Source: Atribacterota bacterium (GTDB taxonomy: Bacteria > Atribacterota > Atribacteria > Atribacterales > Caldatribacteriaceae). From it: DNA of 51,093 bases. Below the pieces are notes generated by a model, which was not told where the DNA came from, ran no database searches, and saw only the letters and a list, made by a program, of their open reading frames with translations. Each line of letters opens with the position of its first letter. The stretch's first letter is position 1. This document shows positions 17,999 through 34,082 of this stretch, in pieces. The DNA is taken from assembly GCA_039638595.1 (NCBI GenBank), contig JBDIWM010000009.1:1-51093 (forward strand), read 5' to 3'. The position numbers were made by a program, and so were the translations under genes.

Positions 17999-18765
17999 AG
18001 TTCCTTTTGGACCTCGTTACGCAAGGTCCCGATTCCCTCGATTTTGACTTCCACCACATCGCCTGGGTGGAGTGGTCCGACTCCAGAAGGAGTACCGGTG
18101 GCAATCACGTCTCCTGGAAGAAGCGTCATAACCTGGGAAATGAACGACACCAGTTCCCAGGCGGAAAACAAAAGTTTACAGGTGTTTGAGCACTGCCTGA
18201 GGTCACCATTGAGATAACACTGAACGGTGGCATTGTGGGGATCGAGATCCGTTTCAATCCAGGGTCCGAGAGGGGAGAAAGTATCAAACGATTTGGCACG
18301 GGTCCACTGACCATCTTTTCTCTGGAGATCCCGGGCGGTAACGTCGTTAAAGCAAGTGTATCCCAAAATATACTCTGGAACTTCCTCTTTCGGTACGTGG
18401 CGAGCACGTTTTTTAATCACGACCGCTAATTCTGCCTCGTAATCGACCTGTTTTGAGCTTTCGGGAAGAATGATTGGGTCTCCAGGACCGATTACTGAAC
18501 TTGATGGTTTGATGAAGATGATGGGATTTTCTGGTACGGGATGACCAAATTCCGCAATGTGGTCCTGATAATTGAGGCCAACAGCCACAATCTTGGTAGG
18601 TCGGGTGGGCGAGAGGAGGCGTAATTGAGCAAGAGGGAAATGTTGACCGGAAGGTTGGCAAAGTGAATGAAAAGGGTTTCGAATTTCCGCTACCATTTCA
18701 TTCTCATATAAAAATCCCCAGCAGGGAGTCCGTTTTTCAGGGTGTAGAAAACGAAGAATTTTCAT
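17980..18765 (-). CDS. Fumarylacetoacetate hydrolase (FAH) family protein
   Basis: A 261-residue protein with the FAH fold: IVAVGLNYQDHIAEFG, PIIFIKPSSSVIGPGDPI, the metal-binding Glu pair in VDYEAELAVVI, GYTCFNDVTARDLQ and the C-terminal GDVIATGTPSGVGPL. FAH members cleave or decarboxylate beta-keto acids, for instance oxaloacetate or acylpyruvates, using Mg or Mn. The substrate cannot be assigned; isocitrate dehydrogenase and an organic-acid-type transporter in the same operon hint at C4-C6 acids. AGAGGT precedes the ATG. Confidence 0.92.
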   Translation of the reverse strand: MKILRFLHPEKRTPCWGFLYENEMVAEIRNPFHSLCQPSGQHFPLAQLRLLSPTRPTKIVAVGLNYQDHIAEFGHPVPENPIIFIKPSSSVIGPGDPIILPESSKQVDYEAELAVVIKKRARHVPKEEVPEYILGYTCFNDVTARDLQRKDGQWTRAKSFDTFSPLGPWIETDLDPHNATVQCYLNGDLRQCSNTCKLLFSAWELVSFISQVMTLLPGDVIATGTPSGVGPLHPGDVVEVKIEGIGTLRNEVQKELCTKSL

Positions 18766-20140
18766 GGTTCAACCTCTTTCGCAAATAATGTTTCTCTCTT
18801 TGAGAAGCCAGAAAAGGAATATGGGTAACGAGGTACTTCTTCATAAAATTAAACACTTCTGTGAAACGCTCTTTCCGGTAAAATTCAAAGTAAGCTCTGA
18901 TAAGCAAACGTCGCAATTCTTTGGGTTTCAGGGTATCGAGCTTGATCACGGAGTGGGCACCGTCAAACAGTGACCAGTTGGTGGAAAGAAGACGCTTCTC
19001 TCCCACAAATTCATCGTAGAGACGTGTTCCTGGAAAGGGGGTAAGGAGGGAAAACTGAACGATATCCAGGTTCAGATTTCTGGCAAACTCAACGGTTTTT
19101 TTTATGGTTTCTTTGGTGTCTTTGAGGCTTCCTAGAATGAAGGATCCCCAGATATGCACGCCGTATTTATGGAGGATGTCAATGGCTTTCTGAGTTGCCT
19201 CAAAGGTGAGATTTTTTCGATACTCATCTAAAATCGATTTTTCAACACTCTCTAAGCCCAAATAAACCATTCGCAGACCAGCCTTGACCATTTTCTTAAT
19301 CGTGGATTCGTTTCTGGCTATGGTATCAGCGCGGGAAAAGCACCACCATTTTATTTTGAGACGGTTGCGTTCAATTTTTTCACACAGTCGCTCCACCCTT
19401 TCTGGAGAAAGGGTGAAGTTGTCGTCAACGAACGCTATCCCCCGGTAGCCAAGGTCAAAATAGAGCTGTTCCAGTTCCTGGAAGACGTTTTCAGGTGAAC
19501 GCGCTCTCCAGGATTTGCCAGAGAAGCGGGAAGAAACACAAAACGTACATTCAAAGGGACATCCTCGGCTGGTGAGGACGCTCATGAGCGGTTCTCCTTC
19601 GATCTGGGTCATCCAGTATTTGGAAAGAGGAAGAAGGTCCCAGGCAGGAAAAGGAAGGCGATCAAGATGCTGAAAGGGTTTTCGGGGGTTAGTGCGAACG
19701 AGTTGTTCATTTTTAAGGAAAGAAATTCCTGGAACCTCAGCAAGGCTTTTCCCGTTTTCAAGGTATTCCAGAAGTTCCAGAAAGGTTTCTTCTCCTTCAC
19801 CTCGAATCACCACATCCACGAGTCCAGAGCGCAGTACTTCTTCATCCTGGAAAGTCGGATGATATCCCCCCATGACCACCAGCCGCTTTTTGGCTTTGGC
19901 TATCCTTGCGGTTTGAAGCGCAGCATAGATGGTGTTGGTCAGAGCAGAAATTCCCACCACGTCGTAGTGGTCCAGGCGCTTTTCTAAATCCTTGGCTTTT
20001 TCGACCTGAAGATCCAAAATGTGGATTTCATGGTGTTTCCGGGCAAGGGAAGCGAGATACGCCAAACCCAGCGGGGGAAGCTTGAGTCCAATATAATGGT
20101 ATATACCCTGAGGAGGGGGGTAAAGAAGAAGCACTTTCAT
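18737..20140 (-). CDS. B12-binding-domain radical SAM protein
   Basis: A 467-residue protein. The N-terminal B12-binding-type Rossmann domain (about 1-140) starts [29 protein letters not shown] and includes [11 protein letters not shown]-like and VMGGYHPTF segments. The radical-SAM domain follows with the CPFECTFC cluster motif (C-x3-C-x2-C) near residue 195. The typical cobalamin contact motif DxHxxG is not evident, so B12 binding is uncertain. Substrate unknown; such enzymes include methylases and ring-forming enzymes. ATG 20140 overlaps the isocitrate dehydrogenase stop by four bases; the 3' end overlaps the FAH gene by 29. Confidence 0.88.
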
Positions 20141-21228
20141 CCCATGCGTTCCCTCAGTTTTTCGATGATGGCTTCTCCAACTTCCCAAGTGGAAGAAGCA
20201 GTGGGGTCATCGGGTGAAGGTTTCAGGTCATAGGTTACTTTTTTCCCTTCTCGAATCACTTCGGCGACTGCCCACTCTAAAAGATCGGCTCTTTCTTTTT
20301 CTTGAAGGTATCGGAGCATCATCACTCCCGAAAGAATGGTGGCAATGGGGTTTACTTTTTGGAGACCCCGGTACTTTGGGGCACTGCCATGGGTGGGTTC
20401 AAAAACGGCATAGTGGTCTCCAATGTTCCCCCCTGGTGCGACACCCAGTCCACCCACCAAACCTGCTCCCAGGTCTGACACCACGTCACCATAGAGGTTT
20501 GGAAGTACCAGAACATCATACAGTTCCGGTTTTTGTACCAGTTGCATGCACATATTATCCACGATTCGATCTTCAAAAACAATGTCCGGGTAATGCTGGG
20601 CCACGCTGCGAGCCACTTCCAGGAATAAGCCATCAGAATATTTCATGATGTTTGCCTTGTGCACCGCAGTTACCTTTTTTCGCCCGTTTTTTCGGGCATA
20701 CTCAAAAGCAAAGCGCACAATTCGATCAGTACCATAGACTGAGATGGGTTTAAGGCTGATTCCAGAATCGGGGCGGATTTTTCCCTTACCCATTTTTTCG
20801 ATTACTCCAATAAGTTCCAGCGTTTCTGGTTTTCCTTTCTCAAACTCCACACCAGCATAAAGGTCTTCGGTGTTTTCCCGGATAATGACGATATCAACGT
20901 AGCTATAGCGCGAACGAACACCGGGATAGACCTTGCATGGTCGTACACAGGCATAGAGATCCAGTTCTTTGCGTAGAGCTACGTTCACACTGCGGAATCC
21001 GGTCCCCACTGGGGTAGTAATCGGCCCTTTCAGAGCCACTCGATTGCGTTTAATGGAGTCAAGCACTCCCTGGGGGAGCGGTGTGCCATATTTTTCGATG
21101 ACATCTGCTCCAGCTTCCTGGATTTCCCACTCAATGTCGATGCCGGTGGCTTCAATCACTTTTCGAGCGACCTCCACAATTTCTGGTCCTGTTCCATCTC
21201 CGGGTATAAGAGTGACTCGATGGCTCAT
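20137..21228 (-). CDS. icd: Isocitrate dehydrogenase (isocitrate/isopropylmalate dehydrogenase family)
   Basis: A 363-residue decarboxylating dehydrogenase making 2-oxoglutarate from isocitrate. [21 protein letters not shown] carries the Ser and Asn that bind the isocitrate gamma-carboxylate, separating it from isopropylmalate dehydrogenases. [29 protein letters not shown] and HGSAPKYRG follow. The Lys-Tyr pair after HGSAP and a later TYD match NADP-type E. coli enzyme, but its last Arg (TYDFER) is Pro here (TYDLKP), so the cofactor is uncertain. AGGAG lies six bases before the ATG. Homoisocitrate dehydrogenase is a less likely alternative. Confidence 0.82.
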
Positions 21229-21251
21229 GATTTCTCCTCCCCTTTCGTTGT

Positions 21252-21728
21252 TTAAAGAATGGTTGCGAGGTTGGTTTTAAGGTCTTCCTGTGGTATTTTC
21301 CCTGCCTTAGAGTAGGTAATTTTTCCCTTTTTGTCGAAGAAGACGATATGGGGAAGAAAGAAAACCCCAAAGTTTTTACTCACTTCCAGAGTTTCATCCA
21401 CCACCACAGGAAAGGGAACTCCGTATTCCTGTACGAAATCTGCAATCTCTTTTTTGTTACGAATTCCCACCCCAATCATGACCAAACCTTTTTCTTGATG
21501 AGTACCATACATTTCTTTCAAGAAAGGCATTTCGTCTTTACAGTCCCCACAGCGTGGCGAGAAGAACACCAGGATAATGGGACGACCAGCAAATTTTCCC
21601 AGGTGAAGAATGTTTCCTTGTAAGTCTTCTAGGGCGAAGTCCTGGTCAAGATACGGATGGAACTGAGCAAAGAAAAATGCAAAAACCACGAGACCAACTG
21701 GTAAAAAGAGCGGAAGGAGTTTTTTCAT
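21252..21728 (-). CDS. TlpA-like thiol-disulfide oxidoreductase
   Basis: A 158-residue protein anchored by an N-terminal hydrophobic segment (about 5-22), with redox motif CGDC in [16 protein letters not shown] (about residue 60) and a later [15 protein letters not shown] containing the cis-Pro loop. It probably acts outside the cytoplasmic membrane in thiol reduction, for example cytochrome or envelope protein maturation. It is the first gene of the minus-strand operon, with a well-formed promoter. AGAGGG precedes the ATG. Confidence 0.87.
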
Positions 21729-21768
21729 TTTCTACCCTCTTTTTTCAGCTTATTTATCCTGTTTGGAT

Positions 21769-21798
21769 AGTATATTCACTAATGCTTCTTGTTGTCAA
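21769..21798 (-). promoter_or_regulatory. Sigma-70-type promoter for the tlpA-icd operon
   Basis: On the minus strand: a perfect -35 TTGACA (21793-21798), an 18-base spacer and TATACT (21769-21774, 5 of 6). The start of transcription would fall near 21762, giving a leader of about 34 bases. This is the best classical -35 in the window. Confidence 0.72.
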
Positions 21799-21882
21799 CG
21801 TTAAAGACCTGCGCAACATGGTACAGGCTTTTGGTCAGGTTTTTCTTGGTAAAAATTTTTTCTGCAAGGATTCATAAATATA

Positions 21883-21911
21883 TTGAAAAAGAGGGGGTAA
21901 ATGCATATACT
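21883..21911 (+). promoter_or_regulatory. Sigma-70-type promoter for the decarboxylase gene
   Basis: TTGAAA (21883-21888), a 17-base spacer, TATACT (21906-21911). The start point would be about 21918, inside the left arm of the inverted repeat that begins at 21911. It is divergent from the tlpA promoter roughly 100 bases away. Confidence 0.68.
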
Positions 21912-21946
21912 TCACAAGGACTCCTTTTACGGAGTTACTTTGTGAA
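21911..21946 (+). promoter_or_regulatory. Strong inverted repeat over the transcription start of the decarboxylase gene
   Basis: Arm TTCACAAGGACTCC (21911-21924), loop TTTTAC, arm GGAGT (21931-21935), a two-base bulge, then CTTTGTGAA (21938-21946). Fourteen pairs form, one of them G-T. No T-run follows, so it is not an intrinsic terminator. Because it starts at the end of the -10 box, it is best read as a repressor operator on DNA or a stem-loop at the mRNA 5' end. Confidence 0.6.
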
Positions 21947-21965
21947 TGCGGGTGGTTAAAAATCA

Positions 21966-23117
21966 ATGGAAAGAAGGTCCAAAACCCTGGAGAGAATTTT
22001 CCCTTTGAGTGAGGAAATAATTGTAGAACTCGCGAATGAGTATGGTACCCCTCTTTTTCTTATTGTTGAAGAGAGAGTAATGCGCAATTATGCGGCCTTT
22101 CAAGAGTTTTTTCCAGGAATCGAAATTTTCTATGCTATAAAGGCCAATCCCCATCCGCTGATACTGAAAATCTTAGCCGACTTAGGTTCTTCGTTTGACG
22201 TGGCTTCGGCTCAGGAGATTGCCCTTGTTCTGGAACACAATGTTGAGCCGCAGCGAATGATTTTCGCCAACACCATTAAAAGAAAAGAGGCCCTGAGATA
22301 TGCTCGGGAAAAAGGCGTGGATTTGCTCACCTATGATAATGAAGAAGAGTTGCGGAAAATCAGAACGGTATATCCGGAAGCAAAGTTGATTTTACGGCTG
22401 AAAACTCCCTCTCTGGGTAGTCGGATTGACCTTTCCTACAAATTTGGTGCGGAGCCTGAGGAAGCGGTAGCGCTTTTAAAACTGGCAAAAAGTCTTGGTC
22501 TTGAAAACGTGGGACTCAGTTTCCATGTTGGTTCTCCTTGTCATAATCCGGAGAATTACCTTCGCTCGCTGGAAATTGTCAGGACAGTCATTCAAGAGGG
22601 AAAACGGGAAGGCGTAATGCTTTCGGTGGTCGATATTGGAGGAGGATTTCCTCTTCACACCTATTATGCTGAGGGTGCAGAAGCGAGCATGGAATATATG
22701 GGTGAGAAAATCTACCCTCTTTTGCGGTCTTTCCTGGTTTCAGGGTATCGTGTGATTGCTGAACCAGGGAGAAGTCTCATTGGAAATGCCTGTCTTCTGG
22801 TCACAAAGGTCATTGGAAAGGCAGTACGCTCGGGGCGCACCTGGTATTACCTCGATGATGGACTGTATGGGACGTTTTCAGCCATTCCTTTTGATAAAGC
22901 CAGCTTCGATTTTTATTCTCTGCGGGATTCTGAAGAAGGACAACCCTGCGTTCTGGCTGGTCCAACCTGTGATTCTCTGGATGTCATCGCCGAAGGCGTA
23001 CACTTACCCTCGCTCATGCTTGATGACCTGATAGTTGTACCGAACATTGGGGCGTATTCGATTGCTTCGGCAACGAATTTTAACGGTTTTGAAAGAGCCA
23101 AAGTGGTCCTCGTTTAA
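21966..23117 (+). CDS. Ornithine/lysine decarboxylase, fold type III PLP enzyme
   Basis: A 383-residue decarboxylase of the alanine-racemase-fold (eukaryotic ODC-like) family. The PLP lysine is Lys59 in FYAIKAN. HVGSPC, GGGFP, EPGRSL and, near the C-terminus, GPTCDSLDVIAEG with catalytic Cys335 follow, then NIGAYSIASATNFNGF. These point to ornithine and/or lysine decarboxylase (putrescine or cadaverine synthesis) rather than diaminopimelate decarboxylase. Substrate preference cannot be read by eye. Its own promoter carries a 36-base inverted repeat. It lies 41 bases before the suf operon, which has a separate promoter. Confidence 0.88.
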   Translation: MERRSKTLERIFPLSEEIIVELANEYGTPLFLIVEERVMRNYAAFQEFFPGIEIFYAIKANPHPLILKILADLGSSFDVASAQEIALVLEHNVEPQRMIFANTIKRKEALRYAREKGVDLLTYDNEEELRKIRTVYPEAKLILRLKTPSLGSRIDLSYKFGAEPEEAVALLKLAKSLGLENVGLSFHVGSPCHNPENYLRSLEIVRTVIQEGKREGVMLSVVDIGGGFPLHTYYAEGAEASMEYMGEKIYPLLRSFLVSGYRVIAEPGRSLIGNACLLVTKVIGKAVRSGRTWYYLDDGLYGTFSAIPFDKASFDFYSLRDSEEGQPCVLAGPTCDSLDVIAEGVHLPSLMLDDLIVVPNIGAYSIASATNFNGFERAKVVLV

Positions 23118-23119
23118 TA

Positions 23120-23128
23120 TGGTATAAT
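23120..23128 (+). promoter_or_regulatory. Extended -10 promoter of the suf operon
   Basis: TGGTATAAT is a perfect extended -10 just after the decarboxylase stop. No TTGACA-like box lies at the correct distance. Transcription would start near 23135, and GGAGGT (23145-23150) then lies eight bases from the sufC ATG. Confidence 0.62.
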
Positions 23129-23158
23129 TGAGATACCTCGAGCTGGAGGTGCACGTGA

Positions 23159-23896
23159 ATGCTTCGTGTAGAAAACCTGAAGGTTTCGGTAGAGGATCGC
23201 GTAGTTCTTGACGGGGTAACTCTGGAAATTCGAGAAGGAGAAGTGCATGTTCTTCTTGGTCCCAATGGGGTGGGTAAGACCACGCTCCTTATGGCCATTA
23301 TGGGAGTTCCTGGCTATCAGATTGTGTCAGGACAAATTTTCTTTAATGGTGAGGACATTACTCGCCTTGATATGGAGGAACGAGCCAAAAGGGGGATTGG
23401 TATCGCGTTTCAAAAGATGCCCCCGGTACGGGGCATTTCTCTCCGTACCATGGGAGAGGTGATTATAAAGACCCATGGTTTTGATGATCCATCTCTTCTT
23501 GAACGTGTAGCCCACCGCTTGGATTGCTCCTATCTCCTTCCACGGGAAGTTGGAGTCGGTTTTTCGGGAGGAGAGGCCAAACGAGCAGAAATTTTCCAAC
23601 TTCTCTTGCAGCGTCCTCTTTTCTCCATGGTTGATGAACCGGAATCCGGGGTGGACCTTGATAATATTGCCCTGGTGGGGAAAGCGCTGAAAGAACTTTT
23701 TGAACGGGAGCAGGTGCGGACAAAGAAGCGGTCGGGTCTGGTTATTACTCATACCGGTTATATTCTGGATTATCTGAACGCTGACCAGGGTCATGTGCTG
23801 GTGAATGGTCGAATTGTTTGTAGTGGTAATCCTCGGGATCTTTTTGAAGATATCCGAATGAAAGGATACAGCGAATGTCTGAGGTGTGAACGATGA
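23159..23896 (+). CDS. sufC: Fe-S cluster assembly ATPase SufC (minimal SUF type)
   Basis: A 245-residue ABC ATPase. Walker A is GPNGVGKTT, the Q-loop region reads GIGIAFQKMPPVRG, the signature FSGGEAKRAEIFQ and Walker B MVDEPESGVDLDNI are SufC-specific, with an H-loop in VITHTG. It drives cluster assembly with the SufB-type scaffold encoded next (four-base overlap). No sufD, sufS, sufU or sufE follows, so this is the two-gene minimal SUF (SmsCB-like) arrangement. It starts behind an extended -10 promoter. Confidence 0.93.
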   Translation: MLRVENLKVSVEDRVVLDGVTLEIREGEVHVLLGPNGVGKTTLLMAIMGVPGYQIVSGQIFFNGEDITRLDMEERAKRGIGIAFQKMPPVRGISLRTMGEVIIKTHGFDDPSLLERVAHRLDCSYLLPREVGVGFSGGEAKRAEIFQLLLQRPLFSMVDEPESGVDLDNIALVGKALKELFEREQVRTKKRSGLVITHTGYILDYLNADQGHVLVNGRIVCSGNPRDLFEDIRMKGYSECLRCER

Positions 23897-25140
23897 GTAC
23901 TGTGGGTGATGTTTTGCGCGCGATCAAAGAAAAAGCCGAAGGAGCACTCATCAAGAAAGCAGTCTTTGGCCCTGATGTGGATCTCTCTCGTTTTTACGAG
24001 TGTTCTCCAAAGGAGCAAATTGGTAGTCTGGAAGAAGTATCTTCTCAGCTGAAAGAAGCAGCTCTGTACGCCGGTGTGGAGCTGGAAAGTCCGGGAGCGG
24101 GGACCTATCTCCAGGTGGATCGTTCCGCAATCTATGAACGAGTTCTGAAACCTTTCGAGGGAAAACTCGAAATCATGAGTGTCCGTCGGGCTCTGGAACT
24201 TTATCCTGAAGTTGTTTCGGAATACTGGTGGAAGCTAATTCCGGTTGACATGGACAAATATACCGCTTTTGCTGAACTCTGTTTCACAGAAGGGTATTTC
24301 ATTCGGGTTTTTGCACACCAGAAAGTCGATATCCCGCTCCAGGCCTGTCTTTTGGTTTCTGAGAAATCCAGAGTGCAGAGTGTTCATAACCTCGTGATTC
24401 TGGAAGAAGGGGCTGAGGCGAACATTATCACCGGATGTGCTTCGGTAAAAGGAAGTGAGGAAGGCGTCCACATCGGGGTGAGCGAGTTCTACCTTGGGAG
24501 AGGGAGCCGTCTCACGTTTACCATGATTCATAACTGGGGGGAACAGTTTCACGTTCGTCCTCGGACTGCGATACGCATGGAGGACAATGCTTTCTTTAGC
24601 AGTACCTATGTGCTGATGAAGCCGGTGGCTTCTTTACAGACCTTTCCTCGGGCATCTCTGGAAGGGAAAAACGCGAACGCCCAGTTTCAGAGCATCATTT
24701 TTGCGAAAGGCCGCTCCTACATCGATATTGGTTCTACCCTCCTTTTAAAGGCGGCAGGATGTCGGGGAAACTCTATTTCCCGGGTCTGTGCCGTGGAGCA
24801 GGCGGAAATATACACTCGAGGACGCCTCATCTCCTACCATGACGATACCCAAGCTCACCTTGAATGCAAGGGGATCCTCTTTTCTTCGGAGGCCAAAATT
24901 ATTTCGATTCCAGAACTGGAGGTTCACGGTGCTCCAAAAGCTCGTCTTTCGCATGAAGCTGCGGTAGGACCTCTGGAAGAGGAAACCATCAACTACCTGC
25001 GTGCTCGAGGCCTTAAGAAAGAAGAAGCGTTGTCTCTCCTCACTCGAGGGTTTTTGAGTATCGATCTTCCAGGGATTCCTGCGCTTCTCAAGGGCTACAT
25101 TGAGGAGATTATCAAGGTCACTTCTCGTGACATCATGTAG
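23893..25140 (+). CDS. sufB: Fe-S cluster assembly scaffold SufB/SufD family
   Basis: A 415-residue scaffold with the right-handed beta-helix core: VHNLVILEEGAEANIITGCAS, FTMIHNWGE, ASLEGKNANAQFQSIIF. Key residues are Cys325 in LECKGILFSS and His354 in RLSHEAAVG, which match the cluster-forming Cys and His of SufB and SufD. It is shorter than E. coli SufB (495), as in archaeal and anaerobe minimal systems, and as the sole SufBD protein here may homodimerise. Overlaps sufC by four bases. Confidence 0.9.
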   Translation: MSTVGDVLRAIKEKAEGALIKKAVFGPDVDLSRFYECSPKEQIGSLEEVSSQLKEAALYAGVELESPGAGTYLQVDRSAIYERVLKPFEGKLEIMSVRRALELYPEVVSEYWWKLIPVDMDKYTAFAELCFTEGYFIRVFAHQKVDIPLQACLLVSEKSRVQSVHNLVILEEGAEANIITGCASVKGSEEGVHIGVSEFYLGRGSRLTFTMIHNWGEQFHVRPRTAIRMEDNAFFSSTYVLMKPVASLQTFPRASLEGKNANAQFQSIIFAKGRSYIDIGSTLLLKAAGCRGNSISRVCAVEQAEIYTRGRLISYHDDTQAHLECKGILFSSEAKIISIPELEVHGAPKARLSHEAAVGPLEEETINYLRARGLKKEEALSLLTRGFLSIDLPGIPALLKGYIEEIIKVTSRDIM

Positions 25141-25151
25141 AGGTGTTGTGC

Positions 25152-25385
25152 TTGGGAGTGCAAGCCTATATTCTGATCCAGGTGCAGGCAGGGAAAGCGC
25201 AGCACATCAAAAAGGAGTTGGTCCAAAATCCTGCCTTTTTGAGGGTGGATCGGATCATGGGGCCTTTTGATCTCATTGCTCTGGTTGAGGCAGAAAATAA
25301 CCGGGAAATTGGAGAAACCATATTACGAGATATTCAGTCGTTAAGCGGAGTGAAGAGAACCCTGACTTGTCCGATCATCCCTTGA
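25152..25385 (+). CDS. Stand-alone Lrp/AsnC ligand-binding (RAM) domain protein
   Basis: A 77-residue protein covering only the RAM effector domain: QAYILIQVQAGKAQHIKKEL, VDRIMGPFDLIALVEA, TILRDIQSLSGVKRTLTCPII. It lacks the helix-turn-helix of Lrp/AsnC regulators. Such single-domain proteins bind small molecules, often amino acids, and may pair with full-length regulators. I start at TTG 25152, six bases after AGAGGTG; GTG 25143 lies within that site. The next gene encodes a helix-turn-helix protein whose own sensor or protease part looks defunct. Confidence 0.8.
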   Translation: MGVQAYILIQVQAGKAQHIKKELVQNPAFLRVDRIMGPFDLIALVEAENNREIGETILRDIQSLSGVKRTLTCPIIP

Positions 25386-25389
25386 GAAC

Positions 25390-26007
25390 ATGGTAATGAG
25401 AGGGAAGAAGAGTATTTCTTCAAAAGGAGAGGAAATCCTTCTTTTCATTGAGCAGTATTCTCGCAAAAATGGCTATCCACCCACAGTGAGAGAGATTGGC
25501 GAGGCGGTGGGCTTAGCTTCGTCCTGTAGTGTTCACTACCATCTGCGTAAGCTCGAGGGAAAAGGTTTTATCCGTAGGGACCCGGCCAAACCACGAGCGA
25601 TTGAGCTGAATGTACATCGGATTGATGCTCGACTGAGTAAAGATATGGTGATTGTCCCGCTGGTGGAAGGTTTTACTTTCAACAAAAGAGGTTTCGATAT
25701 TGGAGAGGCAAAGAAATTTTTTCTTTTCTCTCGTTCTCTTTTGGGTGAAGAAGGATGTTTCGTGTTAAAGGTTGATGGAGATGGGTTTCGGGCGTGGCAT
25801 ATCCTTGGGGGAGATTATCTGTTCATTAATAAAAAAGAAACAGGTTGTGTGGGGGATTTGGTGTTAGTGTGGGAAGGCGGAAATATTGCGATCCGGAGAA
25901 TCGGGGAAAAAGGGAAGCTTTTGGCTGATGAAGCTGATGGTTCGGTTTCTTCTTGGAATGTGGCTATGGTAATCGGGAAAATTGTGGGAATATGGAGGAA
26001 ATTGTAG
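25390..26007 (+). CDS. LexA-like repressor with degenerate S24 peptidase domain
   Basis: A 205-residue LexA-length protein. Residues 10-72 form a LexA-type winged helix (GYPPTVREIGEAVGLASS, LRKLEGKGFIRRDPAKPRAIEL). The C-terminal part aligns with the LexA peptidase fold (CFVLKVDGDGF, GGDYLFINKK, GDLVLVWEGG), but the catalytic Ser (E. coli Ser119) is Gly132, the catalytic Lys (Lys156) is Arg169, and the Ala-Gly cleavage site is missing in VPLVEGFTFNKRG. Self-cleavage should be impossible, so an SOS role by the usual mechanism is unlikely. Its place between the RAM-domain gene and yjbQ in the suf operon suggests local regulation. DNA targets are unknown. Confidence 0.82.
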   Translation: MVMRGKKSISSKGEEILLFIEQYSRKNGYPPTVREIGEAVGLASSCSVHYHLRKLEGKGFIRRDPAKPRAIELNVHRIDARLSKDMVIVPLVEGFTFNKRGFDIGEAKKFFLFSRSLLGEEGCFVLKVDGDGFRAWHILGGDYLFINKKETGCVGDLVLVWEGGNIAIRRIGEKGKLLADEADGSVSSWNVAMVIGKIVGIWRKL

Positions 26008-26019
26008 GAGGTGTTGGAG

Positions 26020-26436
26020 GTGATCGTGACTAGAGAACTTGTTTTTCCCACCGCAGGGCACGGTGAAGTGGTGAAAATTACAGACAAAGTGGTGGAGCTT
26101 TTGGCACAATCTGCGCTCCAACGGGGGATGGTTTTGCTCTTTGTTCCAGGGAACACAGCGATTGTAACGACTCTTGAATTCGAGCCAGGTCTTGTGGCTG
26201 ATGTCAAAAATGCCTGGGAAAAGCTCGTTCCTTCTACTGGTGAATACGAGCACAATCTTCGCTGGGGGGATGGGAATGGGTATGCTCATGTGCGTTCCAG
26301 TTTTGCTGGACCGTCCCTTGTGATTCCCTTTGAGGATGGGAAGCTGATTCTGGGGACCTGGCAGGACATCGTTCTTATCGATTTTGACAATCGTCCCCGA
26401 GATCGACGACTCGTTGTCCAGGTCATGGGAGAATAA
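26020..26436 (+). CDS. YjbQ/UPF0047 family protein
   Basis: A 138-residue protein with a clear UPF0047 signature: GMVLLFVPGNTAIVTTLE, EHNLRWGDGNGYAHVRSSFAGPS, GTWQDIVLIDFDNRPRDRR and the QVMGE end. E. coli YjbQ has weak thiamine-phosphate synthase activity; the physiological role of the family is unclear. The start is ambiguous; I use GTG 26020, seven bases after AGGAGGT, rather than GTG 26011 which abuts that site. Ends one base before the ADH gene. Confidence 0.88.
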   Translation: MIVTRELVFPTAGHGEVVKITDKVVELLAQSALQRGMVLLFVPGNTAIVTTLEFEPGLVADVKNAWEKLVPSTGEYEHNLRWGDGNGYAHVRSSFAGPSLVIPFEDGKLILGTWQDIVLIDFDNRPRDRRLVVQVMGE

Positions 26437-26437
26437 A

Positions 26438-27568
26438 ATGGGAGAGCAATTTGTCTTTCGCTTACCAAAAGAGATTTATTTTGGTCTCGGTGAAGGAAAA
26501 AGGGTGGGGGAACTGATTAAGCGACTGGGAAAAAAGGTGCTTTTCGTCATTGGAAAAAGTTTTGTTCAACGGTATGGAATTCTTGATGAAGTCATGACTT
26601 CTCTTGCTGAGTCGTCTTTAGAATGGGTCATCTTTGAGGGGGTTGAGCCTGAACCATCCCTAAAGACCGTTGACCGCGGTGTGAGCCTGGCGTATCGAGA
26701 GAATTGTGACTTGGTGCTCTCTGTAGGGGGAGGAAGTGTTCTGGATTGTGGAAAGGCCATAGCCGGCGTTTGTGGGAACGGAGAAAGCGTGGTTCCCTTT
26801 TTCGAGGGACAAACCCTGCCCCATCCTGGCATTCCCTGGATAGCTATGCCCACCACGGCAGGCACGGGTTCGGAGATGACCAATAACGCCGTGCTCACCG
26901 ATTACACCAGAAAGCTCAAAAAAAGTTTTCGGAGTCCCTTTCTCATTGCTACTCTGGTCATCGTTGACCCGCTCTACACTCGTTTCATGAGTCCTTACCT
27001 TACCGCGGTAAGCGGTGTTGATGCTCTAATCCAAGCTATTGAAGCATACACCAGTCCCCGGAGAAGCCCTATGACCGATTTTTTGGCTCTGGAAGCGGTG
27101 GAAAGACTATGGAGGCATCTACCACTGGCCGTTCAGGATGGTGATAATCTCGAATATCGGAAAGAGATGGCTCTGGGGAGTCTGGTGAGTGCCATGGCCT
27201 TTGCCAATGCTTCGTCGGGGCCGATTCATGGTCTGGCGCACATGATTGGTCCTGATTTTGGAATTGTGCATGGAGAAGCCTGCGGTATACTCTTTCCGGC
27301 CGTGGTTCGGTTTAATCGAGACGTTTTAGAAAAACGGTATCTCGAGCTTGCTCGGGTTACCGGGAACCAGGGGGTGGAAGAGTGGATAAAGGCGTTTGAG
27401 CACCTGATGCAAAGGATTGGTTTACGGACCAGACTTCGGGAGTTTGGTGTTGGGGAGGAAGCACTCATTTCAGTTATTCGACCAGAGCGAATTGGAGCGA
27501 GCATCAAGGAGAACCCTCGATCCATGGATACGGAGGACTTGTACTCTATCTTGAAAGAGGTGTACTGA
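26438..27568 (+). CDS. Iron-containing alcohol dehydrogenase family
   Basis: A 376-residue NAD(P)-dependent dehydrogenase. GGGSVLDCGKAIAG binds the cofactor; TTAGTGSEMTNNAVLTD is the family signature; HGLAHMIGPDFGIVHGEACG supplies two metal-ligand histidines. The first metal site reads GVDALIQ, with Asp195 kept but Gln199 where FucO-type enzymes have a ligand His (DALTH). Subfamilies with Gln there may exist, so activity is not excluded. Alcohol or aldehyde substrate unknown. Start ATG 26438 follows the yjbQ stop (TAAA-ATG). In the suf operon. Confidence 0.9.
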   Translation: MGEQFVFRLPKEIYFGLGEGKRVGELIKRLGKKVLFVIGKSFVQRYGILDEVMTSLAESSLEWVIFEGVEPEPSLKTVDRGVSLAYRENCDLVLSVGGGSVLDCGKAIAGVCGNGESVVPFFEGQTLPHPGIPWIAMPTTAGTGSEMTNNAVLTDYTRKLKKSFRSPFLIATLVIVDPLYTRFMSPYLTAVSGVDALIQAIEAYTSPRRSPMTDFLALEAVERLWRHLPLAVQDGDNLEYRKEMALGSLVSAMAFANASSGPIHGLAHMIGPDFGIVHGEACGILFPAVVRFNRDVLEKRYLELARVTGNQGVEEWIKAFEHLMQRIGLRTRLREFGVGEEALISVIRPERIGASIKENPRSMDTEDLYSILKEVY

Positions 27569-27583
27569 AAGGAGGGATTGCAA

Positions 27584-27919
27584 GTGGAAATGGTGCGCGA
27601 AGATGAGAAGAGCTTTCGGAATGGAGATTGGGGCATCAAATACCTTTTTCGGGGCCCCCGACTTGACTGGGGTGTGGTTTTACTCAAGCCTGGGACCTGC
27701 ATGGGAGCTCATTACCACCGGGAAGTGGAAGAAACCTTTTTCATCCTGGAAGGGAAGGGGATATTAAAAATCGACGAGTCCGAAATACCGGTGGAACAGG
27801 GCATGGCTTTTCGGGTGGAACCGGGGGAAAAACACGATCTCTATACCCTGGAGAATTCTTCTCTAAAAGGCATTTTCATTAAATTTCCCTATTGTCCAGA
27901 CGACAAGGTCGACTGTTGA
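27584..27919 (+). CDS. Small cupin-domain protein
   Basis: A 111-residue single cupin: GAHYHREVEETFFILEGKGIL holds the His-His-Glu metal-ligand motif 1, and GMAFRVEPGEKHDLYTLENSS motif 2 with the fourth ligand His. Such proteins bind a metal and may act as isomerases, dioxygenases or sensors. I start at GTG 27584, seven bases after GGAGGG; TTG 27578 abuts that site. Four bases separate it from the radical-SAM gene; the substrate is unknown. Confidence 0.88.
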   Translation: MEMVREDEKSFRNGDWGIKYLFRGPRLDWGVVLLKPGTCMGAHYHREVEETFFILEGKGILKIDESEIPVEQGMAFRVEPGEKHDLYTLENSSLKGIFIKFPYCPDDKVDC

Positions 27920-27922
27920 AGC

Positions 27923-28801
27923 ATGGAATCACCGCTTGAGCTTCTGGTCTTTTCCCTCTATGACCATCTTAGGCACTGTGACCTCTGCCCACGTTGTTGC
28001 GGCGTGAACCGTCTGCGAGGCGAAAAAGGATTCTGTCGAGGAGGGATGTTGCCCAGAATAGCCAGTTTCCATCCCCATTTTGGAGAAGAACCGTTGTTGA
28101 GTGGCCGGAAGGGTTCGGGCACCATCTTTTTCACCGGATGCAACATGCACTGTGTGTACTGCCAGAATTACACCATCAGTCAGTTTGACGAAGGAGAAGA
28201 AGTTGATTGCGAAACGCTGGCTGCAATTATGCTCACGCTGCAAAAGGAAGGATGTCATAATCTGAATCTGGTGACTCCGACTCATTTTTTACCCCAAATT
28301 CTCTGCGCATTGAGTATCGCCAAAAAGGCTGGTTTTTCGCTTCCTTTGGTTTACAATACTGGGGGGTATGAAAGGGTAGAAATTCTCCGTCTTTTAAAAG
28401 GTGTGGTTGACATTTACTTACCAGATATGAGATATTCAAGAGAAGAAAGCGGGGTACGGTACTCTCGGGCACTTTTCTACCCGTATTTTAACCGGGAAGC
28501 AGTGCGGGAAATGTTTGCCCAAGTTGGGGAAGTGGTGTGTAATGAGGAAAATGTGGCATTGAGAGGGATGGTGGTAAGGATTTTACTTATTCCCTCTCTG
28601 GTTGACGAAGCCATGGAGAATTTGCGGTTTCTGGCTGAAAATGTTTCTCGGCGGATTTTTATCACGCTGATGCGGCAGTATCGTCCCATGTATCGGGCTT
28701 CGGAATTTCCCGAGCTCGGTGGGCAGATTGATACGGTAACTTATGAGCGAGTGCTTCGATATGGCTTAGAACTTGGCCTGAACAATTTCATCTTGCAGTG
28801 A
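27923..28801 (+). CDS. PflX-like radical SAM protein (COG1313)
   Basis: A 292-residue protein. An N-terminal Cys cluster (CDLCPRCCGVNRLRGEKGFC) typical of PflA-related COG1313 proteins is followed by the radical-SAM motif in FFTGCNMHCVYCQN (C-x3-C-x2-C) and SAM-binding VTPTHFLPQIL. It resembles pyruvate-formate-lyase activase, but no glycyl-radical enzyme is nearby. Target unknown. It lies between the cupin and DUF2148 genes in the suf operon, which would supply the clusters. Confidence 0.88.
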   Translation: MESPLELLVFSLYDHLRHCDLCPRCCGVNRLRGEKGFCRGGMLPRIASFHPHFGEEPLLSGRKGSGTIFFTGCNMHCVYCQNYTISQFDEGEEVDCETLAAIMLTLQKEGCHNLNLVTPTHFLPQILCALSIAKKAGFSLPLVYNTGGYERVEILRLLKGVVDIYLPDMRYSREESGVRYSRALFYPYFNREAVREMFAQVGEVVCNEENVALRGMVVRILLIPSLVDEAMENLRFLAENVSRRIFITLMRQYRPMYRASEFPELGGQIDTVTYERVLRYGLELGLNNFILQ

Positions 28802-28814
28802 AAGGAGGATGAGA

Positions 28815-29336
28815 ATGGAGGCAGCATTGAGGCAGATTGCTGAGTTTATGGTTATTTCAGCCCGGACTGCCCCAAAATCGGGAGGAAAAGATTTTGTTAC
28901 GGTTCAAGTGGTGGAGGGAGATTTGTTACAAAAGTTGGGAGAGGCAATGGTACAGTATGGGGAAGAGACGGGAATTCGAGGTTTTATTCGAGACGGGAAA
29001 AACGTCTTGGATTCGTCAGCGGTGGTGTTGATTGGGTTAAAGGATGCTCAGGTGATGGGCTTAAATTGTGGGGGATGCGGTTTTGATGCCTGCACGGAAC
29101 TGGAACCAAAGGAAAAAAGAGAATTTAAAGGTCCGCAGTGTATGTTGCGCCTTCTGGATCTTGGAATTGCTTTGGGATCGGCAGTAAAAACGGCTTCGCT
29201 ATTTAACGTCGATAATCGTATTATGTACCGTATTGGAGTGATTGCCAGACGTATCGGTCTTACACAGGATGATGTGGTGATGGGAATTCCCCTTGCGGCG
29301 AAGGGGAAGAACATTTATTTTGACCGTAAAGATTAG
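28815..29336 (+). CDS. DUF2148 ferredoxin-domain protein
   Basis: A 173-residue protein of the DUF2148 family: RTAPKSGGKDFV at the start, LGLN-type CGGCGFDAC and a later CMLR, giving Cys residues for a 4Fe-4S cluster. The C-terminus has YRIGVIARRIGLTQDDVVMGIPLAAKGKNIYFDR, a family hallmark. Function unknown; common in anaerobes next to redox enzymes. I start at ATG 28815, six bases after AAGGAGG; ATG 28809 abuts that site. Confidence 0.87.
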   Translation: MEAALRQIAEFMVISARTAPKSGGKDFVTVQVVEGDLLQKLGEAMVQYGEETGIRGFIRDGKNVLDSSAVVLIGLKDAQVMGLNCGGCGFDACTELEPKEKREFKGPQCMLRLLDLGIALGSAVKTASLFNVDNRIMYRIGVIARRIGLTQDDVVMGIPLAAKGKNIYFDRKD

Positions 29337-29346
29337 AGGTGCGTGC

Positions 29347-30222
29347 ATGGGTGAGTTCAGGATTCAAGACGTTATTGGATTGATCCTGGCAATTTTAATC
29401 GTGGCTATTTTAATCAGTATTATTCTGATTTTGCGCGAGAGTGCTCGGGAGAGAAGGCGGTGGACCAGTGAAGAGGAGGAAGAAGAGGAAGTGGGAAAGA
29501 GGCGTTTTCCCTTTCCCCCTCGAGAAGCCACTCGTGGGGCGAGTGAGGTTTCAGGTGAAGCCATACGAGAGGGAAAGTGGGGTGCTTTGCCCCGTCCCCG
29601 GGTGACTGAAGAAGAACAAGAAACGGTTGAAGAAGTTGTCAAAGAATATCCCAAGAAAGGGTATCCTGTCCAGGAAGAGACCGAAAAGGAATTAACCCTT
29701 AAGGAGAACCAAAGGGTAGGGGAAGAAGTGAGGAAAGGGAAAGAACCGAAACAAGTGGTCATCGAAAGGGCCTTGCGAAAGCTTGAAAACCAGGGGATTG
29801 ACTTTGGTAAACTCAAATCTCTGGTGACTGAAGAGATGCTCTCTTTTTCGCCTCTCCTCTGGGAAGTGAAAGAGGAGGTTCGCTCAGGAAAAGAATTGGG
29901 AGAAATCGTGATTCATACTGTTTTCCGAACCATTCCTGGATATTCTGGGGAGGAAATTGTTGAACGATATCGTTCCGGAGATATATCGATTGTAGAGAAA
30001 CTGGAAGCACGAATCAGAACTCCCGAGGGGAGAGATTTCCTCGTGGCAACTCTGAGCCTTGAATATTTTCACGTTCCAGAACTGGAACGAGAAATGAAAA
30101 GGGGGAGTTTGGAGAAAGAAGAATATGAGCTCTTGCGAGCTTTAAAATTCGTGGATCGGAGCACAAAAAGAGAATTCGCTCGTGCCGTTTACGCTCAGAT
30201 TATGAGTGAAGACAAAGAGTAG
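29347..30222 (+). CDS. Membrane-anchored helical protein of unknown function
   Basis: Not recognised. A 291-residue protein with one N-terminal membrane helix (about residues 9-29), a basic stretch (RESARERRRW) and a run of seven Glu (42-48), then a low-complexity linker rich in Glu, Lys and Val (about 50-135). A predicted helical domain (about 135-291) follows (RALRKLENQGIDFGKL, EIVIHTVFRTIPGYSGEEIVERYRSGD). The basic residues after the helix favour a cytoplasmic C-terminus. Start ATG 29347 follows AGAGGTG. It ends the suf operon and precedes a tiny membrane ORF and the long coiled-coil gene. Confidence 0.7.
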   Translation: MGEFRIQDVIGLILAILIVAILISIILILRESARERRRWTSEEEEEEEVGKRRFPFPPREATRGASEVSGEAIREGKWGALPRPRVTEEEQETVEEVVKEYPKKGYPVQEETEKELTLKENQRVGEEVRKGKEPKQVVIERALRKLENQGIDFGKLKSLVTEEMLSFSPLLWEVKEEVRSGKELGEIVIHTVFRTIPGYSGEEIVERYRSGDISIVEKLEARIRTPEGRDFLVATLSLEYFHVPELEREMKRGSLEKEEYELLRALKFVDRSTKREFARAVYAQIMSEDKE

Positions 30223-30226
30223 GGCG

Positions 30227-30352
30227 GTGTTTTTCACTGTTTCATCTCGTAGGGAAAGAAAATTGAGGAACTGGAGAAAGGCGTATTGGGTTGTATTTTT
30301 CATTCTCTGGTTCCTTTTCTCTCTTCTCTATTTTCTCGGTTCTGCTCGTTGA
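30227..30352 (+). CDS. Possible 41-residue membrane miniprotein
   Basis: GTG 30227 opens a frame to TGA 30350-30352. The product has a basic N-terminal part (RRERKLRNWRK) then one aromatic-rich hydrophobic segment (AYWVVFFILWFLFSLLYFLG). An internal TTG at 30263 after AGGGAAAG would give 29 residues. The amphipathic-basic plus membrane-helix layout resembles real small membrane proteins, and it fills most of the 235-base gap between two membrane-anchored proteins. It could equally be chance in a pyrimidine-rich spacer. Confidence 0.35.
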   Translation: MFFTVSSRRERKLRNWRKAYWVVFFILWFLFSLLYFLGSAR

Positions 30353-30417
30353 TTTTGAGTTTCCTTCTGCGATAAGGTTTCCTCAGAGTCATTACTCGCA
30401 AGGTCAAAAGTTCTTTG

Positions 30418-30426
30418 TGCTATAAT
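30418..30426 (+). promoter_or_regulatory. Extended -10 promoter of the coiled-coil/ychF operon
   Basis: TGCTATAAT is a perfect extended -10; no good -35 lies upstream (the 17-base-spaced position reads GCAAGG). Transcription would start near 30433, and GGGGAGGTGG (30443-30452) then serves TTG 30458. Confidence 0.62.
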
Positions 30427-30457
30427 TTTCTAAGGATTTGTGAGGGGAGGTGGTTTT

Positions 30458-33310
30458 TTGAAAACATGGTTTGGGCTTCTCGTGGCGATTGTGGCGATTA
30501 TCCTTGCTTTGGTACTTCTTGCTCAAGTACCTCGTTTGGGTGGTCGGTTGCAAGAGATGGAAACACGACTTTCGGAAGTGGGAAAAAGGGTGGAAGATTT
30601 GGACACTACTCTCAAAACGTTTCCGGGTGATTTATCGCAATTGCGTGAGCGGCTTTTGGGTATGGAGGAACAGGTAAAAGCCACTTTGGAGGTTAGCAAG
30701 AAGGTGGATTCTCTGGCAACATCGGTGAAGAATCTTGACAATTTTCAGGCAGAGGGGCAAAAGACCATTACTGATGTCCAGAGAAAGTTGGATGAGGTGG
30801 AAAAGAGGACAAAAGGTGCGAAAGATATGCTTACTCAAATGGATGACAGGGTTGGGGTTTTGGAGGCGAAAGTTAGACGACTTTCGGAAGTGGAGTCGCT
30901 CTTCAATGTTGTCAGCCAGAAGGTGGATTCATTATCTTCATCTTTTCAGCAAGTCACTGCTTCGCAACTTGAGGAAAAGAAAATCGTTGAGGAACTTGGG
31001 AAACGAATCGACAATCAGGAAAAAGAGACTGAGGGACTGAAACAAGCTCTAAGGATTTTCGATGAAAAGTGGCAGGATTGGGTTGGAAGCCTTGAAAGTC
31101 TGAAAACGCTTGTTCAATCTTCTCTGAGCCGAGTGCAAACACTCCAGGATACGGTTCAAGCCATGGAACAGAGTATTGCCGCTCATGATTCCAGGATGGA
31201 AACAATTCGTCAAGAGATGCGGAAAAACCTTGCCGAATTGGAAAATTTGCTGAGTGCGTTACATATCGACCAGCGTTTTTCAGCGCTTTTAAAGTACGTT
31301 CAGGATAAAGACAAAGAACTGAGATCACTTTGGGAGGACCTGGAACAGAAGCTTAAGGAGAAGGATGGGGTGTTTCAGGATCTTGAGGGCAAAGTGAACA
31401 GGGATTTTGAAACGCTGAAGGCCATTCTGGAGGGCTTGCAGCAAGATATCGCTGTGCTGAAAGGGGAAATAGAGGAAAAGTTGCAAATTCTTTCTGCTTC
31501 ATTCCAGGAAACCAGGGATCTTTTGGAAGAAAAGATACAAGATTGGGAGACCATCAGTCAAAGACTGGCAGCACTTCAGAAGGAATATGTTCCTCAGAAT
31601 CGCTGGGAAGAATTCGTCTTGGAGTGGCAAAAGCAGTTACAGGTTTTTGAGGGAAGTATCAAGGATTTAGCGGTCAAGGTGGATGCGAAGTGGAAGGAGC
31701 TTGAAGAACGCCTGAGGGAGGTAGAAGGTTTATTTAACGAACAATCTCGGCGGGTGGGAGAAATTCGAGAAGAACTCGAGCCAGCGATTGAGGCACTCCA
31801 GGAGAAGGTTTCTCTGCTGGAGGGCGATTTTGAGAAAAATAAAGTATGGATTATGGAGGTAGAGAACAAGCTTGGTGAGAATGCCGGAATCGTTGAAAAG
31901 CTATACAAAGATATTGCAGAAGTGGGTCAAAGTATTGCTCTCTGGGAGGGAAGACTCCGGGAGCTAACGAGCTTTAAAGGAGAATTAGGACAGGAAATCG
32001 ACGAAAAATTGGACAAGGCGTTAAAAGAGCTGCCTGATAAGGCCAGGCTGGAAGTGCTGGAGAAAGACATGGCTACCATCCTTGCTCAGAAAGAAGAGAT
32101 TTTGTCCCAGTTGCGTTTGTGGTATGAAGAACGAGAACGGTTACAACAGGAACTGGAGGGGCGTAAGAAAGATATTGGAAATTTAGAAAAGCGTATCGCT
32201 GAAGAAGAAGCGGCAGGTCGTTCTACCCAGGAGGCTTTGATGAAAATGAAGGAGGAGTTGGAGAGCCTTTCTGGGCTGCGGAAGGAACTCGAAGAGAGGT
32301 TATACCAGTTTAATGGTCAGATTTCTACTCTGGAAGCAAGCCTCAAAGAGCACGAGACGAAAATGGACAACCTGGTTCGTGCCACGAGTCTTGAAGTTCA
32401 GCAATTGACAAAAAGCGTGGAAACCATTCAAGAGGATTTGGGAGCGTTGAAAAAAGAAGGTATTACGCCTCCTCAACATGCAGCGCAGGCTCTGCAAAAC
32501 CTGGAAGAGGGGCTCGCAGGGGTATCACAACGTCTCCAGGAGGTCGAAGGTTTTGCACAAAACTTCTTCCGTATGGGTATTGAGGCTAAGATTTCTTCCA
32601 TGGGAGAGGAAATTCAGGCAGTGGCTAAGAAAATTGAGGGGGTGATGGAACGCTATCCAGCCACGTCGGCAGAAATTGAATCGCTCCGGAAGATGGTCGA
32701 GGAATTGTGGCAAGAGAAGTCGAACATTGAAAAACGCTTTGAAAATCTTACTCAGGAGGTGGAAAGTCTCAAAAAGGGGAAAGAAATTATCGGTGATGTA
32801 GAAAGTCTGAGTCAGGAAAAAGAGCGGTTGCGCCAGGAAATAGAAAGTTTGGCTGGAGAAAAGATGGATCTGGAAAGCGAACTCCAAAAGCAGCAGTACG
32901 AGGTGGAAAAAATCAGGGGAGAACTCCAGAAGCTCGAGGTTGAAAAAGGTTCTACGGAAGAAATTAACCGGTTACGAGAAACCTTGCAGAAGGCCGAAGA
33001 GGGAGTTAACGTTTTAAAGCAGCAGCTTAAGGAGAAAGAAGAACAGATTGAGGCTCTTCAGAAAAAAAATGAGGAATTGAGCCGTCAGTTAGAAGAGACC
33101 GAGAAATATACTTCCTATGTCATTTTACCCTGGGATAATCTGTGGACCATTGCACGGCGATACTATCGAGATGGTCGAAAGTGGAAAGCGATCCTTGAGG
33201 CCAATAAAAACGTCATCGCCGATCCATACAGGCTTCAGCCCTACTTGGAAATCAAAATCCCCCGCCAAACTGTGGATGTGACTGTGGAAGGCGAACCTGA
33301 TGACAAGTAA
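30458..33310 (+). CDS. Giant membrane-anchored coiled-coil protein with C-terminal LysM domain
   Basis: A 950-residue protein not matching any named family I know. One membrane helix lies at about 4-23, then an almost unbroken heptad-rich, Glu/Lys/Leu/Gln-rich coiled coil runs to about residue 880. A LysM-like domain (884-935; ILPWDNLWTIARRYYRDGRKWKAILEANK, then LEIKIPR) closes it. The helix orientation and LysM suggest a periplasmic protein fixed to the inner membrane and binding peptidoglycan. TTG 30458 is chosen for the GGGGAGGTGG site; the GTG at 30440 precedes that site. Followed by the nitroreductase after 15 bases. Cytoplasmic placement, as in SMC-like scaffolds, is possible. Confidence 0.8.
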   Translation: MKTWFGLLVAIVAIILALVLLAQVPRLGGRLQEMETRLSEVGKRVEDLDTTLKTFPGDLSQLRERLLGMEEQVKATLEVSKKVDSLATSVKNLDNFQAEGQKTITDVQRKLDEVEKRTKGAKDMLTQMDDRVGVLEAKVRRLSEVESLFNVVSQKVDSLSSSFQQVTASQLEEKKIVEELGKRIDNQEKETEGLKQALRIFDEKWQDWVGSLESLKTLVQSSLSRVQTLQDTVQAMEQSIAAHDSRMETIRQEMRKNLAELENLLSALHIDQRFSALLKYVQDKDKELRSLWEDLEQKLKEKDGVFQDLEGKVNRDFETLKAILEGLQQDIAVLKGEIEEKLQILSASFQETRDLLEEKIQDWETISQRLAALQKEYVPQNRWEEFVLEWQKQLQVFEGSIKDLAVKVDAKWKELEERLREVEGLFNEQSRRVGEIREELEPAIEALQEKVSLLEGDFEKNKVWIMEVENKLGENAGIVEKLYKDIAEVGQSIALWEGRLRELTSFKGELGQEIDEKLDKALKELPDKARLEVLEKDMATILAQKEEILSQLRLWYEERERLQQELEGRKKDIGNLEKRIAEEEAAGRSTQEALMKMKEELESLSGLRKELEERLYQFNGQISTLEASLKEHETKMDNLVRATSLEVQQLTKSVETIQEDLGALKKEGITPPQHAAQALQNLEEGLAGVSQRLQEVEGFAQNFFRMGIEAKISSMGEEIQAVAKKIEGVMERYPATSAEIESLRKMVEELWQEKSNIEKRFENLTQEVESLKKGKEIIGDVESLSQEKERLRQEIESLAGEKMDLESELQKQQYEVEKIRGELQKLEVEKGSTEEINRLRETLQKAEEGVNVLKQQLKEKEEQIEALQKKNEELSRQLEETEKYTSYVILPWDNLWTIARRYYRDGRKWKAILEANKNVIADPYRLQPYLEIKIPRQTVDVTVEGEPDDK

Positions 33311-33325
33311 AAAGGAGGAATGGAC

Positions 33326-33841: not shown

Positions 33842-33853
33842 GGAGGAGTGGTT

Positions 33854-34081: not shown

Positions 34082-34082
34082 G

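What the first reader, a model, noticed from the sequence alone, without database searches (positions are those of the whole stretch)
25390..26007. LexA homologue with both catalytic residues and the cleavage site lost
Aligning by eye with E. coli LexA, Ser119 becomes Gly132 (codon at 25783) and Lys156 becomes Arg169 (codon at 25894), and the Ala-Gly cleavage site is absent in VPLVEGFTFNKRG. DNA-binding residues look intact. The protein should be a permanently uncleavable repressor, so its signal must come another way. Its gene is locked in a suf operon beside a stand-alone ligand-binding RAM domain.
Basis: partly seen in the sequence, partly recalled or inferred. Interest (0 to 1): 0.72.

Follow-up and report, generated by a model that had tools for sequence, protein, structure and literature searches.

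The report
LexA-derived regulator without self-cleavage machinery
In one order of anaerobic subsurface bacteria (Atribacterota), the DNA-damage repressor LexA has kept its DNA-binding half but lost the parts needed to cut itself, so it has probably been turned into a different kind of gene regulator, as was known before from a cyanobacterium.

Summary
The gene at 25390-26007 encodes a full-length LexA relative with Gly132 for Ser119, Arg169 for Lys156 and no Ala-Gly bond. All 17 intact orthologues in its order (class Atribacteria/OP9) lack Ser and Ala-Gly; 16 of 17 lack Lys. LexA of sister families keeps all three (12 of 12), as do 76 of 76 relatives examined from other phyla. The clade has one origin (100/100), is under purifying selection, and has no conserved replacement nucleophile. 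The recognition helix is conserved but rewired (invariant Cys46 and Tyr50). The genome has no second LexA but has recA. None of 12 genomes with this protein has a Y-family polymerase, against 6 of 8 sister genomes. Ancestral-type LexA boxes occur only inside genes. I conclude that it is a protease-dead LexA that has left the SOS response and works as a DNA-binding regulator with a non-proteolytic signal; target and signal are unknown. The "suf operon" link is only partial: the constant neighbours are lysA and the RAM gene. A protease-dead LexA is known from Synechocystis, so this is a new variant of a known kind.

The parts
25390..26007 (+). lexA*: protease-dead LexA homologue, 205 aa
   Evidence: AlphaFold2 model pLDDT 86, best PDB match T. 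maritima LexA 3k2z, E 3.9e-14
25414..25599 (+). LexA winged-helix DNA-binding domain (residues 9-70)
   Evidence: PF01726 1.9e-20; 67% mean pairwise identity in the clade against 34% for the C-domain
25525..25539 (+). recognition helix residues Cys46 to Tyr50 (E. coli positions 41-45); Cys46 and Tyr50 invariant in the clade
   Evidence: 18 of 18 LexA*; Cys at this position in 1 of 76 canonical LexAs of other phyla, Tyr at the other in none
25678..25683 (+). Phe97-Asn98, position of the E. coli Ala84-Gly85 cleavage site
25783..25785 (+). Gly132 codon, position of Ser119
25894..25896 (+). Arg169 codon, position of Lys156
25143..25385 (+). stand-alone RAM (Lrp/AsnC ligand-binding) domain protein, 80 aa, GTG start
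   Evidence: PF01037 4e-9; present in 25 of 25 genomes of the order
21966..23117 (+). lysA-like PLP decarboxylase, first gene of the operon
   Evidence: TIGR01048 1.1e-61, below its cut-off; conserved in place
23159..23896 (+). sufC
   Evidence: TIGR01978 1.5e-57, just below its cut-off
23893..25140 (+). sufB/sufD-like scaffold
   Evidence: PF01458 3.2e-41
26011..26436 (+). yjbQ (UPF0047)
   Evidence: TIGR00149 1.3e-28
21883..21944 (+). likely operon promoter (TTGAAA-17-TATACT) followed by a hairpin-forming leader; no ancestral-type LexA box
   Evidence: read from the aligned upstream regions of the order; inference

Best explanation
The gene encodes a LexA that lost its peptidase activity once, in an ancestor of this order of Atribacterota, and was kept as a DNA-binding regulator outside the SOS response. 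Shown by sequence: the DNA-binding domain is intact and strongly conserved with a changed recognition helix; the C-domain keeps a LexA-like fold but has no Ser-Lys dyad and no Ala-Gly bond; the gene is under purifying selection and lies inside the lysA-(sufCB)-RAM-lexA*-yjbQ gene run. Inferred: it binds DNA as a dimer through its C-domain, cannot be inactivated by RecA-stimulated self-cleavage, and its occupancy is set without proteolysis, by its own level, by a modification (the invariant Cys46 in the recognition helix is a candidate), or by a partner or ligand on the freed C-domain. Its targets are unknown and are probably not the ancestral SOS set.
For: Ser and Ala-Gly missing in 17 of 17 orthologues, Lys in 16 of 17. 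The residues there vary (G/A/K/T/R/N; R/E/W/G/K), as expected when catalysis is no longer selected; only Asp142 is invariant among S/T/C/K/H/D/E in the C-domain, so no replacement nucleophile is evident. Canonical LexA in sister families f5/f7 and in 76 other bacteria. One clade, 100/100 support. dN/dS of 0.00-0.08 (DNA-binding) and 0.07-0.13 (C-domain) in the three pairs with usable dS. Full-length LexA fold. Only LexA_DNA_bind protein over cut-off in its genome; recA present. SOS dismantled: Y-family polymerase in 0 of 12 LexA* genomes, against 6 of 8 canonical genomes, where it lies 1-5 kb from lexA. Boxes of type RAACATAYGTTY sit upstream of canonical lexA but only inside genes in LexA* genomes.
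Against: No operator, target or signal was identified, so 'DNA-binding regulator' rests on domain conservation. The gene was lost in genera g8 and g10 of the same order. The box search used only two consensus forms. The LexA* branch is long, so its exact relation to canonical LexA is not resolved.
Confidence: 0.8

Rival explanations
1. LexA* is a dedicated repressor of the operon it sits in (lysA-sufCB-RAM), sensing Fe-S or redox state, for example through Cys46.
For: sufB lies just upstream of RAM-lexA* in 15 of 18 loci, window included; invariant Cys46 in the recognition helix.
Against: In f3 (L046, L050, L054) lexA* persists without sufCB beside it, and G013 and G021 have no detected SufB. 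No conserved operator-like dyad in the operon promoter across families; the f1 inverted repeat has arms that change together, which suits an RNA hairpin better.
Confidence: 0.2
2. RAM and LexA* form a two-piece ligand-sensing regulator: RAM binds an amino acid or other metabolite and LexA* supplies DNA binding, a split analogue of Lrp.
For: Adjacent genes in every LexA* locus seen; LexA* never occurs without RAM. RAM in none of the canonical-LexA families except one weak match. lysA heads the operon. Stand-alone RAM proteins can form hetero-octamers with an Lrp protein (PMC2995911).
Against: RAM persists without lexA* in g8 and g10, so it has another role. No interface evidence; complexes could not be modelled here.
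Confidence: 0.12
3. LexA* is a decaying relic of lexA without function.
For: C-domain identity falls to 34%; lost in g8 and g10; frameshift in one draft genome, G007.
Against: Strong purifying selection on both domains, open frames in 17 genomes, invariant recognition helix.
Confidence: 0.04
4. It still regulates DNA-damage genes, induced by an outside protease or by loss of synthesis instead of self-cleavage.
For: recA retained; it is the only LexA in the genome.
Against: No LexA-type box found in intergenic DNA; Y-family polymerase absent from all 12 LexA* genomes tested; recA follows another gene closely in most f1 genomes, without an evident box.
Confidence: 0.08

Closest known systems
LexA of Synechocystis sp. 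PCC 6803 (PMC3091678, PMC4759255, PMC7567884)
   Same: Lacks the Ala-Gly bond and the catalytic Ser; not involved in SOS; retained as a transcription factor.
   Different: Reported there as one unusual cyanobacterial LexA; here an order-wide clade in another phylum, also without Lys in 16 of 17, with a rewired recognition helix and a fixed operon position.
Canonical LexA of sister Atribacterota families f5/f7
   Same: Same two-domain architecture.
   Different: Intact Ala-Gly, Ser and Lys motifs; own promoter with an AAACATAYGTTT box; usually near a Y-family polymerase gene.
Thermotoga maritima LexA (PDB 3k2z)
   Same: Best sequence and structure match over full length.
   Different: Keeps the catalytic motif GESM in the aligned position.
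Stand-alone RAM proteins such as DM1 of Pyrococcus (PMC2995911)
   Same: RAM domain without DNA-binding domain, like the neighbour gene at 25143-25385.
   Different: I found no report of such a protein linked with a LexA homologue.

Membership tests
LexA (S24 self-cleaving SOS repressor) | LexA winged-helix DNA-binding domain | tested here: met
   PF01726 1.9e-20, 72.8 bits against a cut-off of 23.7
LexA (S24 self-cleaving SOS repressor) | S24 C-domain fold | tested here: met
   PF00717 just over cut-off; AlphaFold2 model matches LexA structures over full length
LexA (S24 self-cleaving SOS repressor) | Ser-Lys catalytic dyad | tested here: not met
   Gly132, Arg169; no replacement conserved in the clade
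LexA (S24 self-cleaving SOS repressor) | Ala-Gly (or equivalent) cleavage bond | tested here: not met
   Phe-Asn at the position; region not conserved
LexA (S24 self-cleaving SOS repressor) | SOS boxes upstream of its own gene and repair genes | tested here: inconclusive
   Boxes of two consensus types only inside genes; a changed box would escape this test
LexA (S24 self-cleaving SOS repressor) | NCBIfam TIGR00498 cut-off | tested here: not met
   108.5 bits against 110.95
Protease-dead LexA regulators (Synechocystis type) | LexA domains with catalytic Ser and Ala-Gly lost | tested here: met
Protease-dead LexA regulators (Synechocystis type) | Sequence-specific DNA binding and regulation outside SOS | not testable with these tools
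   needs EMSA, DAP-seq or RNA-seq
Dedicated suf regulator (SufR/IscR-like role) | Constant linkage to suf genes | tested here: not met
   lexA* kept without sufCB in f3

The most novel reading that the evidence does not exclude
An order-wide conversion of LexA from a DNA-damage switch into a metabolic or redox sensor: either the invariant Cys46 in the DNA-recognition helix acts as the switch, or the neighbouring stand-alone RAM protein acts on LexA* as its ligand-sensing half.
Probability: 0.2. Interest if true: 0.75.

Novelty: new variant of a known kind. Interest (0 to 1): 0.48.

Why it matters
LexA is the textbook self-cleaving SOS repressor. A whole bacterial order in which its peptidase is dead, the DNA-recognition helix is rewired and the translesion polymerase is missing is a natural experiment in how an SOS regulator is re-used, and it gives a comparison with the cyanobacterial case. 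The literature search in the held library found no paper naming it in Atribacterota.

Tried and rejected
Bacillota-type box CGAACN4GTTCG: 0-3 sites per genome, about as many as the reversed control, and the sites lie in long ORFs. The paired GAAC-N4-GTTC sites at G000:C21 looked like a tandem operator but lie inside an ABC transporter ATPase gene. The inverted repeat downstream of the operon's -10 was considered as operator: its arms change together between genera, G001 and G003 keep it through G-U pairs, and related promoters without lexA* also have a short hairpin there; folding is better than shuffles only for the window's own leader, so this is weak. Rfam found nothing in 17000-36000. The first genome-contig scan with the single protein found nothing; the alignment scan worked. 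A second LexA in the genome was sought: only an XRE-S24 protein with GDSM and a lysine in LTIKQV, not a LexA.

Full report
What is there. Window 25390-26007 (+) encodes 205 aa with a LexA winged-helix domain (PF01726 1.9e-20) and a weak S24 domain (PF00717 2.1e-5); the NCBIfam lexA model covers residues 8-205 but scores just under its cut-off. Against E. coli and T. maritima LexA, Ser119 is Gly132, Lys156 is Arg169, and the Ala84-Gly85 bond is Phe97-Asn98. An AlphaFold2 model (mean pLDDT 86, pTM 0.61) matches T. maritima LexA over its full length (Foldseek E 3.9e-14; whole-chain rmsd 12 A because the two domains sit at another angle) and the M. tuberculosis LexA C-domain at 2.7-2.8 A.

Distribution. 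In 61 genomes searched by kinship, LexA* orthologues occur in families f1, f2, f4 and part of f3 of the window's order. In 17 with an intact frame, position 119 is G, A, K, T, R or N and position 156 is R, E, W, G or, once, K; none has Ser or Ala-Gly. No Ser, Thr, Cys or Lys column of the C-domain is invariant, the best being Lys197 in 13 of 17, so no substitute nucleophile is evident. Twelve LexAs of sister families f5/f7 keep Ala-Gly, Ser and Lys, and so do 76 of 76 examined LexAs from other phyla. That the order is Atribacterales of class Atribacteria/OP9 and the sister families are Phoenicimicrobiia/JS1 is my inference from PMC11227167. LexA* is one clade with 100/100 support.

Still a working gene. 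dN/dS in pairs with usable dS is 0.00-0.08 for the DNA-binding domain and 0.07-0.13 for the C-domain. Mean pairwise identity is 67% for the DNA-binding domain and 34% for the C-domain, against 70% and 77% in canonical relatives. The C-domain has been freed from its old constraint but is still selected. The recognition helix is SSC(S/T)V(H/Y)Y: Cys46 and Tyr50 are invariant in 18 of 18, where canonical LexAs of other phyla have S/A (one C in 76) and A/S/G/V/N/K. By general knowledge of LexA-DNA structures these positions (E. coli Asn41 and Glu45) contact DNA, so binding specificity has probably changed.

SOS context. The genome has one LexA_DNA_bind protein over cut-off and a recA. Its other S24 protein, at G000:C24, is an XRE-type repressor with Ser and Lys motifs. 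A Y-family polymerase (PF00817) was found in 0 of 12 LexA* genomes, 6 of 8 canonical-LexA genomes (1-5 kb from lexA in those six), and 2 of 2 genomes of genus g8, which lost LexA*; there it stands next to S24 genes. Canonical sister lexA promoters carry AAACATAYGTTT between -35 and -10. The same motif in LexA* genomes occurs only inside or at the start of long ORFs, while in sister genomes it is intergenic.

Neighbourhood. In f1, f2 and f4 the order is lysA-sufC-sufB-RAM-lexA*-yjbQ-ADH-cupin (yjbQ missing in g4). In f3 genera g6 and g9, sufCB is replaced by an oppositely oriented aldo/keto-reductase-like gene while RAM-lexA* stays (the name is my reading of the sequence). In g8 and g10, lexA* is lost and RAM remains; G019 has only a fused remnant of sufC and sufB. 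SufB lies elsewhere in G015, G017, G018 and G020, and is not found in G013, G019 and G021. RAM is in 25 of 25 genomes of the order and, apart from one weak match, in none of the other phylum members. So the gene is fixed in a lysA-RAM operon more than in a suf operon.

Mechanism. Shown: loss of the cleavage chemistry, retention of the DNA-binding domain, selection. Inferred: DNA binding as a dimer, no RecA-triggered inactivation, a non-proteolytic signal. The signal cannot be named from sequence. The three candidates are abundance, Cys46, and a ligand or partner such as RAM.

Known precedent. Synechocystis LexA lacks Ala-Gly and the catalytic Ser and is outside SOS (PMC3091678, PMC4759255, PMC7567884). 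Papers on Atribacterota with LexA or the SOS response were sought and none found in the held library. The present case is a new, order-wide variant of that known kind.

Noticed in passing
window 21883-21944 and upstream of lysA in L038-L043: Conserved promoter TTGMAA-N17-TATACT followed by an inverted repeat whose arms change together (ACTCC/GGAGT in g1-g2, ACCTC/GAGGT in g3), probably a 5' leader hairpin; folding support is good only for the window's own leader.
   Followed up: partly
L121-L126 (genus g8) and L120 (G019): Genera without lexA* and without sufCB in the operon keep RAM between lysA and ADH; in G019 the start of sufC is fused in frame to the end of sufB, a deletion remnant or an assembly error.
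   Followed up: partly
G015:C88 and G017:C1:1803762-1805328: In genus g8 two S24 genes, one XRE-length (221 aa frame) and one short (117 aa frame), lie directly beside a Y-family polymerase gene: a possible replacement DNA-damage cassette where LexA* is lost.
   Followed up: no
G032:C73:6366 and G025:C49:128752: Further intergenic RAACATAYGTTY sites in canonical-LexA sister genomes, candidate members of the Phoenicimicrobiia SOS regulon.
   Followed up: no
L148, L149 (G005:C31): recA of G005 is split in two reading frames, probably a frameshift in the draft genome.
   Followed up: no
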